A DNA stretch of 58,529 nucleotides from Egibacteraceae bacterium (lineage in GTDB: Bacteria > Actinomycetota > Nitriliruptoria > Euzebyales > Egibacteraceae), in assembly GCA_035540635.1 (NCBI GenBank), contig DATLGH010000042.1, positions 1 to 58,529 on the forward strand. Direction: 5' to 3'. The translations under genes and the position numbers were made by a program. Below, piece by piece: positions 1,042 through 24,708 of the stretch. The notes below the pieces were generated by a model that made no database searches, had not been told where the DNA came from, and saw only the letters and a list, made by a program, of their open reading frames with translations. Position 1 is the first letter of the stretch; each line of letters starts with the position of its first letter.

Positions 1042-2157
1042 CTACGCGCGCAGCGAGACGATGGCCGCGCCCTCACGGACGAGGTCGTAGAGCTGGACCA
1101 CGTCGGTGTTCGTGAGACGCACGCAGCCCTTCGACGCGTCGGTGCCGATCGAGTCGACGTTCGCGGTGCCGTGGAAGCGGATCGCGGGCGCGTCCCAGTT
1201 GATGGCGCGGACGCCGAGGGGGTTGTTCACCCCTGGGCCGATGGTGGGCGGCATGTTGGCTCCCCAGCCGTTCGGCGAGGGGTTGACCCACGTCGGCATG
1301 TGGCGCTTCGCCGTGACGGTGTACCGCCCGACCGGCGTGGGATGGTCGCCCGTCCCCACCGCGACGTCCCAGGAGTGGGTGATCACGCCGCCCCGGTAGA
1401 GGTAGAGCTTGTGCTCGAGCTGGCGGAGCAGGAGCACCTGGTCGAAGGACGCCGTGGTGACCTCGGGCGCGACGGGGTGGACGACGAGGTCGACGGCCTC
1501 GTCGCCCTCGGTCACCGCCTCGTAGAGGCTCTCGGCGCCGGCCTCGGTGTCAACGACCCGCCCGTCGCTGCCCGCGACGATCTGCACCCAGCCCGTCGAG
1601 TAGTCCAGGGCGGCGTCCGTGGGAGCGAGGTTCACCTCGGCGGCGATCGCGTCGACGAAGTCGCGCGCGCCCTCCTCGGAGTGCGTGACGGTGACGTCCC
1701 GCGCGAAGTCGAGCTCCTCGCCGAACCAGCGCATGCGAGCGTAGCCGATCCACCCGGGGTGGGCGCTCGCGTCCACGGCTGCGGCGACTGCCTCCTCGGC
1801 GTCGCTCGTCGCTCCGAGCTCGCGGGGGGTGGTGGACCACTCCTCCGTCTGCCAGCGCACGGTCACCGGGCGGTCGAGCTCGGGCGCGATGGACTCCTCG
1901 ACGGCGGCGAGCGCCTCCTCGGCCGTGAGGCCGCTGACGTCCACGCCGGCCACGGTCGCGGTCGGCAGGATGCGCCCGTCGTAGCTCCCCGCGTACGCAG
2001 CCGTCCCGTAGCCGACCACCGCACCGGCGGCCAAGGCCGCGAGCCCCACCACGGCGCCGGTCCCCCACAGCCACCTGCGCCGGTGTCCACGCTCAGGCAC
2101 GACCGGCTCCCCCGCCGCGGGGACGGAAGGCGCACCCTCCAAAACGTCCGTGGTCAT
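1042..2157 (-). CDS. Membrane-anchored L,D-transpeptidase (YkuD domain)
   Basis: Predicted peptidoglycan 3-3 cross-linking (or protein-anchoring) L,D-transpeptidase of 371 residues. A short cytoplasmic N-terminus is followed by one membrane segment at about residues 29-56. A VanW/YoaR-like peptidoglycan-binding region covers roughly 60-230, and the YkuD catalytic domain takes the last 130 residues. The YkuD signature is visible: His about 16 residues before the nucleophile and SKGCVRL with the catalytic Cys at about 345. I chose the ATG at 2157 (MTTDVLEG) over the in-frame GTG at 2214, because a purine-rich GAAGGGG stretch precedes it and the earlier 19 residues are unlike a signal region. 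Its promoter probably lies in the 120-bp gap to aceE, where TAGACT is a -10-like element on this strand. Function confidence is high; substrate specificity is unknown. Confidence 0.88.
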   Translation of the reverse strand: MTTDVLEGAPSVPAAGEPVVPERGHRRRWLWGTGAVVGLAALAAGAVVGYGTAAYAGSYDGRILPTATVAGVDVSGLTAEEALAAVEESIAPELDRPVTVRWQTEEWSTTPRELGATSDAEEAVAAAVDASAHPGWIGYARMRWFGEELDFARDVTVTHSEEGARDFVDAIAAEVNLAPTDAALDYSTGWVQIVAGSDGRVVDTEAGAESLYEAVTEGDEAVDLVVHPVAPEVTTASFDQVLLLRQLEHKLYLYRGGVITHSWDVAVGTGDHPTPVGRYTVTAKRHMPTWVNPSPNGWGANMPPTIGPGVNNPLGVRAINWDAPAIRFHGTANVDSIGTDASKGCVRLTNTDVVQLYDLVREGAAIVSLRA

Positions 2158-2278
2158 CGCGCCCCTTCGCCCCTGCTTGCCTTCCCTGCCCATGAGCAAC
2201 ATGGATCGCACCACGCCGCAGTAGAAGACGGGAGTCTAGTGCAAGCGCGCGCACCGTGCCGCTGGACTTTCGACCACG

Positions 2279-5038
2279 TCAAGGAACCGCAGTCGTCGCG
2301 TCGGGGTCGACGTCGTAGCGCGCGATGGCCTCGGCGACGGTCGCGTGCTTCACGTCCCCCTCGAGGGCGAGCTCGTGGAGGATCGCCACGACGATCGACG
2401 CGGCGTCGACCCGGAAGTGGCGACGCAGCGCGGCACGGGTGTCGGACCGGCCGAAGCCGTCGGTGCCGAGCACCCCGTAGGGCCTCGGCACCCACCGGGC
2501 GACGAGACCGGGCACGGCCGCCTGGTAGTCCGACACGCCCACGACCGGTCCCTCGGCGTCCGCGAGGAGCTGCGTGACGATCGGCCACCGCGGCTTGTCG
2601 GTCGGGTGGAGCTGGTTCCAGCGGTCGCAGTCGACCCCGTCCCGGTGCAGCTCGACCCAGCCGGGGGCGCTCCACACGTCCGCGTCGACGTCCCACTCCT
2701 CGCCGAGGAGCCGGGCGGCCTCGAGCGCCTCGCGCATGATGCTGCCGCTCGCGAGGATCTGCGCGCGGTGGCTGCGTTCCCCCTCGGCCTGCTGGTAGCG
2801 GTACAGGCCCCGGAGGACAGCCCCCTCGTCGAGGCCCTCGGGCATCGGCGGCTGCACGACCGGCTCGTTGTAGACGGTGAGGTAGTACATGACGTCGGGC
2901 GAGCGGCCGGTCGCGTCGCCGAACATGCGCCGGATGCCGTCCTCGACGATCACCGCGATCTCGTAGGCGAACGACGGGTCGTAGGCGACCACCGCCGGGT
3001 TCGTGGCCGCCATGAGCAGCGAGTGGCCGTCCTGGTGCTGCAGGCCCTCCCCGTTCAGGGTCGTGCGGCCCGCGGTCGCGGCCATGAGGAACCCGCGGGC
3101 ACGCTGGTCGGCTGCGGACCAGATCGAGTCGCCGGTGCGCTGAAAGCCGAACATCGAGTAGAAGACGTACACCGGCAGCATCGGCTCGGCGAACGTCGCG
3201 TAGCTCGTGCCGGCGGCGTGGAAGGAGCCCATCGAGCCGGCTTCGGTGATCCCCTCGTGGAGGATCTGGCCGTCCCTGGCCTCGCGGTAGGCGAGGAGCA
3301 TCTCGCGGTCGACGGGCTCGTACTGCTGCCCGTGCGGCGAGTAGATCTTCTGCGACGGAAACAGCGAGTCCATGCCGAAGGTCCGCGCCTCGTCGGGGAT
3401 GATCGGCACGATCCGCCGGCCCAGCTCGTCCGCCTTGAACAGGTCCTTGAGCAGCCGCACGAACGCCATGGTGGTTGCGACCTCGTGCTTGCCCGAGCCC
3501 TTCTTCAGCTCCGCGTAGGCGTCCTTCGCCGGCAGCTTCAGGGGCTTGGCGCGCAACACCCGTCGCGGCAGCGAGCCGCCGAGCTCGCGGCGACGGTCCA
3601 TCATGTACGCGATCTCCTCGGAGTCGCGGCCGGGGTGGTAGTAGGGCGGCAGGTCGCCCTCGAGCTCGGCGTCGGAGATCTCGAGGTAGAGACGGTCGCG
3701 GAACTTCTTCAGGGCCTTCTGGGTGAGCTTCTTCATCTGGTGGGTGGCGTTGCGCGCCTCGAAGTCCGGCCCGAGCGTCCACCCCTTGATGGTCTGCGCG
3801 AGGATGACCGTCGGCTGCCCGGTGTGCTCGACGGCGGCCTTGAACGCGGCGTAGACCTTGCGGTAGTCGTGCCCCCCACGGTCGAGGACCGGCAGGTCCT
3901 CGTCGGTGAGCCCGCTCGCGGCGAGGATGCGCTGCAGCTCGTCGCTGTCGAAGAACTGCTCACGGATGTACTTGCCGCTCGAGGTCGTGTAGGTCTGGAA
4001 CTGGCCGTCGGGGGTCTCGTTCATCTTGCGGACGAGCTCGCCGTCGCGGTCGTGGGCGAGCAGCTCGTCCCACTTGCGGCCCCACACGACCTTCACGACG
4101 TTCCAGCCCGCGCCCCGGAAGTAGGCCTCGAGCTCCTGGATGATCTTGCCGTTGCCACGCACGGGGCCGTCGAGGCGCTGGAGGTTGCAGTTGATGACGA
4201 AGGTGAGGTTGTCGAGCTCCTCGCGGCCGGCCACGCCGAGGGCGCCGAGGGCCTCGGGCTCGTCCATCTCGCCGTCCCCGAGGAAGCACCACACCCGCGA
4301 GCCGGAGGTGTCGGCGATGCCGCGGTTGTGGAGGTAGCGGTTGAACCGGGCCTGGTAGATCGCGTTGATCGCGCCGAGCCCCATGGAGACCGTGGGGTAC
4401 TCCCAGAAGTCGGGCATGAGCCGGGGGTGTGGATAGCTCGACAGGCCCTCCGACGAGCTCTCCTGGCGGAAGCCGTCGAGCTGGTCCTCACTCAGGCGGC
4501 CCTCGAGGTAGGCGCGCGCGTAGATGCCCGGCGAGGCGTGGCCCTGGATGAAGATCTGGTCACCCGCCTGGGTGGTGTCGTCCCCGCCCGCGGCACCGCT
4601 GCCGCCCTTCCCCGCGGCACCGCTGCCGCCTTTCCCCCGGAAGAAGTGGTTGAACCCGACCTCGTAGAGCGACGCGGACGAGGCGTACGTGGCGATGTGG
4701 CCGCCGACGCCGATCTCCGGACGGTTCGCGCGGCTGACCATGACCGCGGCGTTCCAGCGGATGTAGGCGCGGATGCGCCGCTCGATGTGCTCGTCGCCGG
4801 GGAACGGCGGTTCCCGCTCCGGCGGGATGGTGTTGATGTAGTCGGTGGAGGTGAGCGCCGGCACGCCGACCTGGTTGGCCTGCGCCTCCTGGAGCAGCCG
4901 CAGGACGAGGTAGCGCGCGCGATCACGCCCGTGGGCGTCGATCACCGCGTGGAGGGAGTCGAGCCACTCTCGCGTCTCGGCGGGGTCGGCGTCGGGCAGC
5001 TGGCTCGGCATCCCGTCGACGATGACCTTGTCGCTCAC
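2279..5038 (-). CDS. aceE: Pyruvate dehydrogenase E1 component, homodimeric type
   Basis: The 919-residue E1 subunit decarboxylates pyruvate with thiamine diphosphate and hands the acetyl group to the lipoyl E2 of the pyruvate dehydrogenase complex. The TPP motif starts at GDGEMDE (254-260) with its Asn near 283-285, and the homodimeric AceE architecture runs full length. The start is GTG at 5038, preceded by a strong GAGGAGGG site. The GTG overlaps the udgX stop as GTGA, so translation is probably coupled. An unusual Gly/Ala/Ser/Lys insert of two perfect 8-residue units sits at residues 136-151, in a surface-loop region before the QGHASPG motif. E2 and E3 genes are not in this window. Placement behind a DNA-repair gene is odd for a housekeeping enzyme and suggests it also has another promoter. 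Confidence 0.97.
4586..4633 (-). repeat. aceE: In-frame 2 x 24-bp tandem repeat inside aceE
   Basis: Two adjacent 24-base units each encode KGGSGAAG (aceE residues 136-143 and 144-151). They differ only at the Lys wobble base (AAA versus AAG) and one or two other third positions. They form a flexible glycine-rich insert not present in the AceE proteins I know. Its DNA core resembles that of the repeat at 25218-25289 in an unrelated gene. Confidence 0.85.
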
Positions 5039-5724
5039 CGTTCCCTCCTCGATCGCGGGCCGTTGTCGTCCAACCCTAGTGCGCCCGACCGGCCGAGGAG
5101 GCGGGCCGCCGCGGTGAGATCATCGACGAAGTCGGCGCGAGCCTCGGCGCGGGCGTCCTCGTCGGGTCGCCCGCCCCCGCGGGCCCGAAGGATAGACGAG
5201 GGGTGCACGGTGGCGATGACCGTGCGCCCGTCCTCCCACGCGATCGGCTCACCGCGCTGGGCCGTGACCCGGAACGACCGGCCGAGCAGGGCCTTCGCGG
5301 CGGTCGCCCCGAGCACGACGATCACCTTCGGGTCGACGACCGCGATCTCGGCGTCGAGCCACGGGCGGCAGGCGGTGATGTGCTCGGTCTTCGGCGTGGC
5401 GTGGATCCGCCGCTTGCCGCGGGGGGTGAAGCTGAAGTGCTTGACGACGTTGGTGACGTACGCGGCCTCACGGTCGATGCCGGCGGCCTGCAGCCCTTCT
5501 CCGAGCTCGCGGCCCGCCGGGCCGACGAAGGGGTGACCCTCCCGGTCCTCGCGGTCGCCCGGCTGCTCGCCGAGGAGCATGAGCGGCGCGGGCGCCGGCC
5601 CCTCGCCGAACACCGTCTGGGTGGTGCCCTCCCACAGGGCGCAGGCGCGGCAGCCGGCGGCGGCTTCGCGCAGCTCGGGCAGGGTCGCGCGCTCGGGGAC
5701 GAGGGGCGCGGCGGCGGCGCTCAC
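5035..5724 (-). CDS. udgX: UdgX-type uracil-DNA glycosylase
   Basis: A 229-residue uracil-DNA glycosylase of the UdgX branch. Known UdgX proteins excise uracil and stay covalently attached to the DNA sugar through a His in the KRRIH loop. That loop is intact here at residues 104-108 (catalytic His108). GEQPGD at 52-57 carries the family-4 motif A and HPSSILR at 174-180 is motif B. Cys25, Cys28 and Cys119 are candidate 4Fe-4S ligands; His96 in VVKHF sits where ordinary family-4 enzymes have a Cys, so the fourth ligand is uncertain. GTG start at 5724. It follows DUF6504 by about 100 bp on the same strand, and its stop overlaps the aceE start (GTGA). The upstream promoter carries an SOS box, so DNA-damage induction is likely. 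UdgX identity is clear; operon membership is inferred. Confidence 0.93.
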
Positions 5725-5826
5725 CGGGCCGGCCCCCCCGATGCGCCGAGCGCGACTCGCACGACACCTCGTCGGGGGATCATGGCAGCGGTGTGCCCGC
5801 GCTGGCGCCGCGTTGAACGTCGGTCG

Positions 5827-6075
5827 CTAGTCCCACACCCGGTCGAGGCGCCAGGCGCCGGCTTCGTGGACGAGCTCGTACACCCCGCCCCCCGCCTCGA
5901 CCCGCCAGAGGTCCCGCTGGGGTACCTCGATCGCCCCGCCCGACCAGTAGCCGGCGTCCTCCCTCCAGTGGCCGAGCACCGCCCGCACCCGGTAGCTGGC
6001 GCCACGCCAGGAGAACCGCGTCGGGCCCGTGCGGTCGACGTCGACCTCGACCGGTTCCCGGTAGCGCTTGGCCAT
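5827..6075 (-). CDS. DUF6504 family protein
   Basis: An 82-residue protein of the DUF6504 type, recognised by its MAKRYREP start, the WRGASYRVRAVLGHW block and the terminal VYELVHEAGAWRLDRVWD-like block. No catalytic motif is visible; it is rich in Trp and Arg and looks like a small compact fold. From memory, relatives in many actinobacteria sit beside imuB/dnaE2 translesion-polymerase genes, but no polymerase gene is present here. The ATG at 6075 is chosen over GTG at 6165 because a perfect GGAGGG site lies five bases before it and the extra 30 residues are low-complexity Arg/Pro. It is the first gene after an SOS-box promoter and is followed by udgX. Function unknown; DNA-damage response is inferred from context. 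Confidence 0.8.
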   Translation of the reverse strand: MAKRYREPVEVDVDRTGPTRFSWRGASYRVRAVLGHWREDAGYWSGGAIEVPQRDLWRVEAGGGVYELVHEAGAWRLDRVWD

Positions 6076-6185
6076 TCGTCCCTCCGCGGTTGCGCGGCTG
6101 CGCGAGCGGCGTGGACGTGGCAGCGTGGCGGCCGGCTCACGCCTTCCCTCGCGTCCGGCCGCCACGCCGTGGTTGCCAGGACCGA

Positions 6186-6242
6186 ATCGAACTTCCGTTC
6201 GATCCCGACGGGCACGGTACGCCCGCGACCAGCCCGCGTCAA
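6186..6242 (-). promoter_or_regulatory. LexA-controlled promoter (SOS box) for DUF6504-udgX
   Basis: On the minus strand, TTGACG (6242-6237) and TACCGT (6219-6214) are separated by exactly 17 bases, a good sigma-70-type promoter. Four to six bases downstream of the expected start site lies the perfect palindrome ATCGAAC-N4-GTTCGAT (6203-6186), which contains the actinobacterial LexA/SOS box GAAC-N4-GTTC in its extended TCGAAC...GTTCGA form. Repressor bound here would block initiation. The -35 hexamer overlaps the stop codon of the upstream lipoprotein gene. The leader to the DUF6504 ATG is about 130 bases. Confidence 0.8.
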
Positions 6243-22776: not shown

Positions 22777-23307
22777 TCAGGCGGCGCCCTGGTCGCCGCC
22801 CGACCCGACGCGCGCGTCGTAGACCTCCTCGGCCGGCAGGGCGAGCAGCCGGCGAGCCATGTCCTCCTTCGCCCGGACGAGCGTCTCAGCCTCGGCCGGC
22901 GTCGCGGGCCCCCGGCCGGCGAGCTCGAGGAAGTCGTCGCTCATATGCCCTGGGCGCAGCGTGAGGTCGGCGGACCGGCCGCGGTAGGCGAGACGGAAGA
23001 AGAAGGGCCCCTCCGGGCCGGGCGGCGCGTCCCGAGGCGCGATCTCGGGCGCGAGCCGGTAGCGGTTGCCGGTCACCGCCCGGGTGACCATCTCGAAGGC
23101 GTCGCGGGTGCCCGCCCCCGCGAAGGCGCTGTCGACCGTGATCGCGTAGCGCTCCGGGGGTTCGTCGGCGAGCAGGGGGAACGCGCGCTCCATGACCTTG
23201 AAGCCGTGCGCGAGACCGGCGATGGAGCTGCGGCCGTGGTACTTCACGAGGTCGTCAAAGAACACGACGATGAGCTCGCCGTGGTCGAGCACCTCCAGCG
23301 TCGCCAT
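22777..23307 (-). CDS. FmdE-like protein with altered metal-site residues
   Basis: A 176-residue soluble protein. The sequence VKYHGRSSIAGLAHGFKVMERA near residue 22 and AFAGAGTRDAFEMVTRAVTGN near 62 follow the layout of the FmdE (formylmethanofuran dehydrogenase subunit E) family, in which HGHxCPG and C-x-VDA-x-Q supply metal-ligating His and Cys. Here the Cys positions are Ser, Ala or Gly/Thr, so metal binding is doubtful. The C-terminal 40 residues are helical and charged. The ATG at 23307 follows GAGGAGACC. It stands alone between the eRF1-like gene and a decayed glycosylase gene. Family call is tentative; a non-metal descendant or an unrelated fold is possible. Confidence 0.55.
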   Translation of the reverse strand: MATLEVLDHGELIVVFFDDLVKYHGRSSIAGLAHGFKVMERAFPLLADEPPERYAITVDSAFAGAGTRDAFEMVTRAVTGNRYRLAPEIAPRDAPPGPEGPFFFRLAYRGRSADLTLRPGHMSDDFLELAGRGPATPAEAETLVRAKEDMARRLLALPAEEVYDARVGSGGDQGAA

Positions 23308-23403: not shown

Positions 23404-23699
23404 TCAGCGCGCGCGGGCGCCGGGGGCGTCGAGCGGGTCGCCGAAGGCGGTGCCCGCAGCGGCAAACCACGTGCCCGCAGCCGCCCAGTGGTACTGGCTC
23501 GAGAGCCAGGACCCGGCGGGTCCGGCGCGCACGATCCCGCCCTCCATCGCCAGCAGGAACAGGTGACCGGGTCACTCGAGTGCACCGCGACGAGGTCGCG
23601 AACCCCGCTCACCACATCGGAAGCGGTGACGGCGAGGTGGTGGCGAGCCACAAGGCGCGCCCGGCGCTCGGCGGTCGTGATGCGCGGGCGCGGCGTCAC
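23404..23699 (-). pseudogene. AlkZ-like winged-helix DNA glycosylase, internally deleted
   Basis: The frame from GTG 23699 encodes about 45 residues (ITTAERRARLVARHHLA, then VRDLVAVHSSDPVT) matching the N-terminus of the HTH_42/AlkZ-like family of DNA glycosylases. After a frame change the same strand encodes LFLLAMEGGIVRAGPAGSW and LSSQYHWA, matching the middle of that family, followed shortly by TGA at 23404. A complete relative has roughly 350-400 residues, so about 100 internal residues and the whole C-terminus are gone. It lies directly downstream of the VOC gene, on the same strand, behind an SOS box. Non-functional as it stands. Confidence 0.7.
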
Positions 23700-23730
23700 C
23701 GCGCTGGACCGCCGGCGGGCCGCCCGCTGG

Positions 23731-24195
23731 TCACCCGCCGGGCGTCCACTCGGCCGCACGTCGGGCCATCTCCTCCTCGGAGACGTCCTCGACGTGGCTG
23801 GCCACGCCCCAGCGGTGCCCGAAGGGATCCTCGAACCTCCCGGAACGATCGCCGTAGAACTGGTCAGCGACCGCTTCGAGCACGCGTGCGCCCGCCTGCA
23901 CGGCGCGATCGAAGACCGCATCGACGTCCTCGACGTAGACGTGGAGGCTGACCGGGCTGCCGCCGACCGTTCGGGGGCTCGGCATGTCGGTGCCGGGCTG
24001 CTCGTCGCCGAGCATGATGACGGAGTCGCCGATCACGAGCTCGGCGTGCGCCACCGTGCCGTCGGGACCCGCCATGCGCATCCTCTCCGTCGCCCCGAGC
24101 ACCGCGACGTAGAAGTCGATGGCGTCTGCCGCGCCGGCAACGATCAGGGCGGGTATGACGCGCGGATAGCCCTCGGGAATGGGGTCGACGGGCAT
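23731..24195 (-). CDS. VOC-family (glyoxalase/PhnB-like) protein
   Basis: A 154-residue vicinal-oxygen-chelate protein with two beta-alpha-beta-beta-beta modules. It starts YPRVIPALIVAGAADAIDFY and contains RMAGPDGTVAHAELVIGDSVIMLGDE and RFEDPFGHRWGVASHVEDVS. The pattern is that of PhnB-like VOC proteins, for which no single substrate can be assigned; metal-ligand His/Glu positions look partly retained. The ATG at 24195 has AGGAG nearby. An SOS box lies 37-50 bases upstream, so DNA-damage control is possible. The downstream gene is the broken AlkZ-like glycosylase. Confidence 0.85.
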   Translation of the reverse strand: MPVDPIPEGYPRVIPALIVAGAADAIDFYVAVLGATERMRMAGPDGTVAHAELVIGDSVIMLGDEQPGTDMPSPRTVGGSPVSLHVYVEDVDAVFDRAVQAGARVLEAVADQFYGDRSGRFEDPFGHRWGVASHVEDVSEEEMARRAAEWTPGG

Positions 24196-24231
24196 AGGCT
24201 CTCCTGTTCATCGCAGCCGTGTGGCGGGTAG

Positions 24232-24245
24232 CGAACGTATGTTCG
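24232..24245 (-). promoter_or_regulatory. SOS (LexA) box upstream of the VOC gene
   Basis: CGAACGTATGTTCG is a perfect palindrome containing GAAC-GTAT-GTTC, the actinobacterial LexA box. On the minus strand a TATACG -10-like element (24250-24245) abuts it, and the VOC ATG is 37 bases downstream. No good -35 is seen. It is the second box of this type in the window. Confidence 0.65.
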
Positions 24246-24251
24246 TATACC

Positions 24252-24540
24252 TTAGCAGAGCGCTCGCCGCCAGGCAAGGGACACTTCGGCCGACCACTCG
24301 GCGCCGAGGTCGGCGAGCCGCGCCGCCACCTCCCATGCCGCATGGGACGCGCGGCCTGCGCTGCGGCGGCTTCGAGCCGATGAACCCGCCGCAGCGTGGC
24401 CGTGCGGAACTGCGGCGCGTGACCGCAGCATCGCCGCGTCGCACCGAGAAAGCGACCCGGCGAAGCCGCCACCGTAACGGCGGAGTGTGACGGCGACGCT
24501 CCGAGCGTGTTGCGATCAGGTGAACGGTGGGGAGCGTGGC
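24252..24540 (-). other. Gene-free stretch with decayed minus-strand coding signal
   Basis: No intact gene fits here. The minus strand ends with a coding-like segment (AAWEVAARLADLGAEWSAEV, then SLAWRRALC and TAA at 24252). In a second frame upstream of it lies LRRVHRLEAAAAQAAR, which would join after one frameshift into a helical protein end. I cannot name the family. A 9-bp inverted repeat (24361-24369 with 24386-24394) lies within it. Confidence 0.3.
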
Positions 24541-24579
24541 CGCAGGTCTCCGCCGTCGGTGGGCAGTCCATGACGAGCA

Positions 24580-24708
24580 GGTCGGGGTAGGTGGCGAAGT
24601 CGGCGATCACGTCCGGACGGCGTCCGGGCCGGCCTCCACCGTGATGCTGTCGGATACGGCGTCGGACACCTGGCGCTCGTGGGGCTCGGGAAGCTCCCGC
24701 GGGGTCAT
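24580..24708 (-). pseudogene. Truncated SRPBCC (START-like) gene
   Basis: An ATG at 24708 overlaps the stop of the zinc-ribbon gene as ATGA and begins a frame reading SDAVSDSITVEAGPDAV. After a one-base shift it continues VIADFATYPDL, together matching the N-terminus of SRPBCC/polyketide-cyclase-like proteins. The frame is broken at VRT-TGA and homology stops after about 45 residues, where a normal protein has about 150. The intact SRPBCC gene at 25428 is in the same unit. Confidence 0.6.

What the first reader, a model, noticed from the sequence alone, without database searches (positions are those of the whole stretch)
23404..24250. Second SOS box heads a VOC gene and a wrecked AlkZ-like glycosylase
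GAAC-GTAT-GTTC abuts a TATACG -10 and precedes the VOC gene by 37 bases. The next gene on that strand is an internally deleted AlkZ-like DNA glycosylase. So a second damage-controlled unit once encoded another DNA glycosylase. The VOC protein may be a leftover partner, for example in resistance to a DNA-damaging compound.
Basis: partly seen in the sequence, partly recalled or inferred. Interest (0 to 1): 0.65.

Follow-up and report, generated by a model that had tools for sequence, protein, structure and literature searches.

The report
DNA-damage-switched small-molecule-binding VOC gene
An intact gene of the glyoxalase/antibiotic-binding (VOC) family sits behind a textbook LexA "SOS" switch that recurs in front of the same gene in two distant actinobacterial lineages, so it is very probably turned on by DNA damage; the broken DNA-repair gene next to it is real, but it looks like one of several pieces of local genome debris rather than its lost partner.

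Summary
CGAACATACGTTCG (24245-24232, minus strand) is the best LexA-box match in the window and scores as high as the lexA boxes of the same genome. It lies just after a -35/-10 pair and 36 bp before an intact 154-aa PhnB-like VOC gene. Downstream is a genuine AlkZ-like (PF06224) wreck: residues 1-46 joined out of frame to the middle of the protein, with about 131 codons and the last third missing.

The box is not chance. Perfect boxes at 27-37 bp recur before VOC orthologs in two more genera of the same family and two genera of a distant actinobacterial family; about 97 other VOC homologs have none. So there is a real, patchy SOS-VOC unit.

The proposed VOC-AlkZ partnership is not supported. 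No relative has the pair behind a box. Intact relatives of the wreck lie elsewhere without a box. The region also holds SRPBCC and ArsA fragments, so it is a deletion scar.

Fold and sequence point to TioX and TnmS1, which bind DNA-damaging antibiotics, so SOS-induced sequestration of a genotoxin is the favoured but untested function. It is a new member of the SOS regulon, not a new system.

The parts
24232..24245 (-). LexA (SOS) box CGAACATACGTTCG, palindromic, just downstream of the -10 and overlapping the likely transcription start
   Evidence: same motif at the genome's lexA (three boxes), recA, exonuclease/GIY-YIG gene and DUF6504-UDG
24272..24277 (-). -35-like TTGCCT, 17 bp upstream of the -10
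   Evidence: sequence; TTGCC/TTGTC at the same place in G012, G017, G196
   Evidence: sequence; TAGGAT, TACCAT, TAGGGT in the relatives
23731..24195 (-). intact PhnB-like VOC protein, 154 aa, with AGGAG ribosome site before the ATG
   Evidence: PF00903 E 2.6e-16; GC3 0.89; AlphaFold2 pLDDT 92
23562..23699 (-). AlkZ-like wreck, N-terminal piece (46 aa)
   Evidence: 78% identity to intact AlkZ-like of G006, 77% to that of G001
23446..23562 (-). AlkZ-like wreck, middle piece in a different frame; about 131 residues missing before it and the C-terminal part missing after it
   Evidence: 72% identity over 36 aa
24581..24669 (-). fragment of a SRPBCC/polyketide-cyclase gene (residues 1-30, one frame slip)
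   Evidence: tblastn with the intact G001 gene, 78% and 73% identity; intact in G001, G005, G014
24542..24583 (-). fragment of an ArsA ATPase gene (residues 126-139)
   Evidence: 71% identity over 14 aa directly at the SRPBCC break; intact gene at this place in G001, G005, G014

Best explanation
The feature is a one-gene SOS unit. LexA bound at 24232-24245, over the transcription start, blocks a sigma70-type promoter. DNA damage activates RecA, LexA cleaves itself, and the VOC protein is made. The protein most likely binds, and perhaps inactivates, a small genotoxic compound, as the VOC-fold proteins TioX, TnmS1 and BlmA do, so it lowers the cause of damage while the rest of the regulon repairs it. 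The AlkZ-like wreck is debris in a region that has lost several genes, not a needed partner. Shown: box, promoter layout, conservation across two lineages, intact gene, wreck. Inferred: LexA binding, induction, ligand and function.
For: Box equals the genome's own LexA sites in score and matches the ChIP-seq motif tCGAAC-N4-GNNCGa of Streptomyces venezuelae (PMC9380542). Perfect boxes at -36 (G012), -32 (G017), -30 (G196) and -27 (G331) before VOC orthologs, none in about 97 other homologs. In four of the five the box lies 1-9 bp after a TANNNT -10 with TTGnC 17-18 bp above (G331's -10/-35 was not examined closely). Reversed-pattern controls of the linked search gave 0 in 396 genomes. The VOC gene is intact while three neighbours are in pieces. 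Best profile and fold matches: TioX 3itw (E 1e-13; rank 1) and TnmS1 5umq (rank 5). TioX sequesters the DNA bisintercalator thiocoraline (PMC4052310).
Against: No binding or expression data. The ligand is unknown, sequence identity to TioX is only about 26%, and many VOC folds (fosfomycin enzymes, glyoxalase I, PhnB) match nearly as well. Most orthologs have no box and must do their job without SOS control. The genome has a second, box-less copy 66% identical.
Confidence: 0.68

Rival explanations
1. VOC and AlkZ were once a two-gene SOS operon for resistance to one DNA-alkylating compound (binder plus glycosylase), and AlkZ was later lost here.
For: Same strand, 31 nt between VOC stop and AlkZ start; azinomycin producers pair AlkZ with a drug-binding protein (PMC6804068); G017 has both genes 1.1 kb apart.
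Against: No relative has the pair in an operon; G017's AlkZ is only 27% identical to the wreck's relatives and lies behind an opposite-strand cyclase gene; the wreck's intact relatives in G001 and G006 have neither VOC nor box nearby; a 15-nt stem-loop lies between the two genes; two other gene fragments show general decay here.
Confidence: 0.1
2. The SOS-induced VOC protein is a glyoxalase-like detoxifier of reactive metabolites such as methylglyoxal that arise or matter during DNA damage.
For: M. tuberculosis SigG, itself DNA-damage induced, switches on two glyoxalase-like VOC genes, and methylglyoxal detoxification was proposed (PMC3776920). The VOC family is widespread in non-producers.
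Against: In that study the sigG mutant was not more sensitive to methylglyoxal or DNA damage. The nearest profile match is a drug-binding protein, not glyoxalase I.
Confidence: 0.22
3. The box is a chance palindrome and the VOC gene is not in the SOS regulon.
For: One-mismatch boxes are as common as chance.
Against: Perfect box, promoter position and recurrence in four other genomes; a rough estimate from the reversed-control rate (3 sites in 3.46 Mb) gives far fewer than one chance hit among the roughly 100 upstream regions examined.
Confidence: 0.04

Closest known systems
Actinobacterial LexA/SOS regulon (e.g. Streptomyces venezuelae, PMC9380542)
   Same: Same operator CGAAC-N4-GTTCG; placed at the promoter like the lexA and recA boxes of this genome
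   Different: The main text of that regulon study contains no 'glyoxalase'; a VOC gene as a direct LexA target was not found in the papers searched
TioX (3itw), TnmS1 (5umq), BlmA: VOC-fold drug-binding self-resistance proteins
   Same: Fold and best profile match
   Different: Those lie in biosynthetic clusters of producers; no cluster was seen in the genes I examined here, and identity is about 26%
M. tuberculosis SigG regulon VOC genes Rv0887c and Rv0911 (PMC3776920)
   Same: DNA-damage-linked control of VOC genes
   Different: Control there is through SigG, RecA-independent, not by a LexA box at the gene
AlkZ-like DNA glycosylases (PF06224)
   Same: The wreck is a remnant of this family
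   Different: Not functional here; G000 has no intact copy found

Membership tests
LexA/SOS regulon | Operator matching the genome's own LexA sites | tested here: met
   score 23.2 against 18.4-22.5 for lexA, recA and repair genes; this genome encodes LexA with three boxes of the same kind
LexA/SOS regulon | Operator overlaps or abuts the promoter of the gene | tested here: met
   TTGCCT-17-TAAGGT directly before the box; hexamers picked by eye
LexA/SOS regulon | Operator conserved with the gene in relatives | tested here: met
   G012, G017, G196, G331; but absent from most homologs and only a degenerate site in G007
LexA/SOS regulon | LexA binding and induction by DNA damage | not testable with these tools
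   needs experiment
VOC superfamily, PhnB-like | Pfam Glyoxalase match and VOC fold | tested here: met
   PF00903 E 2.6e-16; model pLDDT 92, PhnB, TioX and FosB-type folds
Drug-binding VOC (TioX/TnmS1/BlmA type) | Binds a DNA-damaging natural product | not testable with these tools
   only similarity
Glyoxalase I | Metal-ligand set and activity on methylglyoxal-thiol | not tested
   no residue-level comparison with 1f9z was made
AlkZ-like glycosylase (PF06224) | Full-length domain (329 profile positions) with intact frame | tested here: not met
   two pieces in two frames, about 131 codons and the C-terminal part missing; not found by the family search in G000

The most novel reading that the evidence does not exclude
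Some actinobacteria outside the antibiotic producers place a genotoxin-sequestering VOC protein directly under LexA, so that the SOS response includes removal of the damaging chemical as well as repair; the unit arose at least twice.
Probability: 0.3. Interest if true: 0.62.

Novelty: new member of a known kind. Interest (0 to 1): 0.42.

Why it matters
It gives a clean, testable case of a non-repair gene under direct LexA control in little-studied actinobacteria. If the protein binds a DNA-damaging compound, the SOS response would include neutralising the cause of damage, and the box-VOC pair could be used as a marker to find unknown genotoxin-resistance proteins.

Tried and rejected
VOC-AlkZ operon: rejected on linkage, subtype and context. 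Mobile carriage: no match in phages; only chromosome-like megaplasmids of other groups among the best plasmid hits. The stretch 24255-24560 as a dispersed repeat: only weak short matches in the genome. The downstream 176-aa gene (22777-23307) as a partner: found only in the two genomes of this genus, apart from one weak short match, with paralogs elsewhere. First pattern search failed because the gap was too short; repeated correctly. The G135 match shows no VOC gene on the ORFs seen, and G095 and G022 are not VOC matches on the ORFs seen. The tree could not resolve whether the box-bearing VOCs form one clade. Literature searches for LexA with VOC or glyoxalase found no direct precedent.

Full report
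WHAT IS THERE. The window is contig 42 of a 3.46-Mb actinobacterial genome assembly in 110 contigs. On the minus strand the perfect palindromic box CGAACATACGTTCG lies at 24245-24232, 36 bp (37 bp from the 12-mer core) before an intact 154-codon gene at 24195-23731 with a good ribosome site. The protein is a PhnB-like VOC protein (PF00903, E 2.6e-16). The next gene on that strand is a broken AlkZ-like glycosylase gene.

IS THE BOX REAL. The relaxed 12-mer pattern is at chance level in the window, so the claim rests on the perfect 10-base form. That form occurs 13 times in the whole genome against 3 for the reversed control. The list includes lexA (two perfect boxes plus one near-perfect), recA, an exonuclease/GIY-YIG gene and the DUF6504-UDG unit at 6188 of this window. 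A matrix made from those sites, without the VOC box, scores the VOC box 23.2, as high as the best lexA boxes, and next in the window after the 6188 site there is nothing above 10.7. The motif agrees with the ChIP-seq consensus tCGAAC-N4-GNNCGa of S. venezuelae (PMC9380542).

PROMOTER ANATOMY. Reading the minus strand: TTGCCT (24277-24272), 17 bp, TAAGGT (24254-24249), 3 bp, box. G012 has TTGCCG-18-TAGGAT, G017 TTGCCC-17-TACCAT and G196 TTGTCC-18-TAGGGT, each with the box 1-9 bp after the -10. This is the layout of a LexA-repressed promoter. The hexamers were picked by eye; no promoter scan was run.

CONSERVATION. VOC homologs were collected from 61 genomes, the window's own and its relatives, and from the named genome collection. 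Of about 101 homologs with upstream DNA, a perfect box within 60 bp of the start was found in the window, G012 (-36), G017 (-32) and G196 (-30), with one degenerate site in G007 and none in the others. A second linked-pattern search added G331 (-27; VOC confirmed by translation). G196 and G331 are two genera of one family distant from that of the window; a neighbouring isocitrate lyase of a long type suggests, but does not prove, an acidimicrobial family. Within that family only 2 of 42 genomes match, and 3 of 396 and 5 of 396 phylum genomes match the two patterns; together these are three VOC genes (G000, G196, G331) and three matches without one; the reversed-pattern controls gave 0 in those two searches. 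The unit is therefore real but patchy: gained, or lost, repeatedly. A tree of 100 VOC proteins does not resolve the backbone, so one origin inside the window's family is neither shown nor excluded. The box-less second copy in the same genome (66% identical) groups with the box-less copy of G015.

THE ALKZ-LIKE WRECK. Residues 1-46 (23699-23562) match intact AlkZ-like proteins of G006 (78%) and G001 (77%); the sequence then continues, in another frame and without a gap in the DNA, with the segment 131 residues further on (72% over 36 aa), and the last part is missing. G000 has no intact PF06224 gene by the family search, while 26 of 30 genomes of the order have a match.

WERE VOC AND ALKZ PARTNERS. 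The AlkZ start lies 31 nt after the VOC stop, so an ancestral transcript could have covered both. But in G012, G007 and G015 the genes are on other contigs or more than 270 kb apart. In G017 an AlkZ-like gene lies 1.1 kb downstream, but a cyclase gene (PF04199) on the opposite strand lies between, and that AlkZ is only 27% identical to the relatives of the wreck. The wreck's true relatives in G001 and G006 have no VOC gene and no box near them. G012, G007 and G196 have an opposite-strand gene directly after VOC. In this genome VOC is thus best read as a single-gene unit.

THE SCAR. In G001, G005 and G014 the order is zinc-ribbon, SRPBCC, ArsA, (small gene in G001), baeRF10 (the zinc-ribbon match in G005 is weaker). 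In the window the zinc-ribbon and baeRF10 genes remain, SRPBCC is cut after about 30 residues, and 14 residues of ArsA follow at once. VOC, the AlkZ wreck and a 176-aa gene restricted to this genus occupy the gap. The VOC gene, with good codon structure (GC3 0.89), has stayed intact among three wrecks, which suggests it is kept by selection; this is inference.

FUNCTION. AlphaFold2 gives a confident VOC fold (pLDDT 92). The best profile match in the PDB is TioX (3itw, E 1e-13), also first by fold, with the antibiotic-binding TnmS1 (5umq) fifth, among PhnB-like, fosfomycin and glyoxalase folds. TioX captures thiocoraline, a DNA bisintercalator, in the manner of BlmA (PMC4052310). That TnmS1 protects against an enediyne is from my own knowledge. 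A damage-induced binder of a genotoxin is a natural reading, but the fold is shared by many enzymes, so I give it about 0.45 as the function and about 0.9 to LexA control; the single figure of 0.68 for the best explanation is a compromise between the two. The main functional rival is detoxification of reactive metabolites, with the SigG-controlled VOC genes of M. tuberculosis as precedent (PMC3776920).

NOVELTY. LexA control of lineage-specific genes and DNA-damage control of VOC genes are both known; direct LexA control of a VOC gene was not found in the papers searched, although supplements and subscription papers were not read. I file it as a new member of a known kind.

Noticed in passing
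L011 1-1509 (G000:C67, recA): The SOS-boxed recA gene is interrupted by an intein with a LAGLIDADG endonuclease domain (Pfam), directly after the residues ...KVGVMFG.
   Followed up: partly
window 5035-6201: First SOS box (6188-6201) heads a DUF6504 gene and a uracil-DNA glycosylase gene (PF20114, PF03167).
   Followed up: partly
L001 3-1484 (G000:C6): SOS box directly before a gene fusing a DnaQ-like exonuclease with a GIY-YIG nuclease domain.
   Followed up: partly
L023 (G025) 1453-3235: A related but box-less VOC gene lies tail to tail with a dinB-type polymerase gene whose start carries the box CGAACACATGTTCG.
   Followed up: partly
L090, L098, L109 about 90 bp before the VOC start: Three Terriglobia VOC genes share a site like CCAACTTGTGTTCT at nearly the same distance; whether it is an operator is unknown.
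   Followed up: no
window 22777-23307: A 176-aa protein family found only in the two genomes of this genus (two copies each, one broken in G000:C18; one weak short match in G006), with a weak FmdE match.
   Followed up: partly
window 24300-24500: Non-coding stretch rich in inverted repeats (for example 24359-24373 with 24382-24396), with only short weak matches elsewhere in the genome.
   Followed up: partly
L190 (G022:C2), positions 1885 and 1914: Two perfect LexA boxes side by side in a small-genome relative, one identical to the VOC box; the gene they control was not identified.
   Followed up: no
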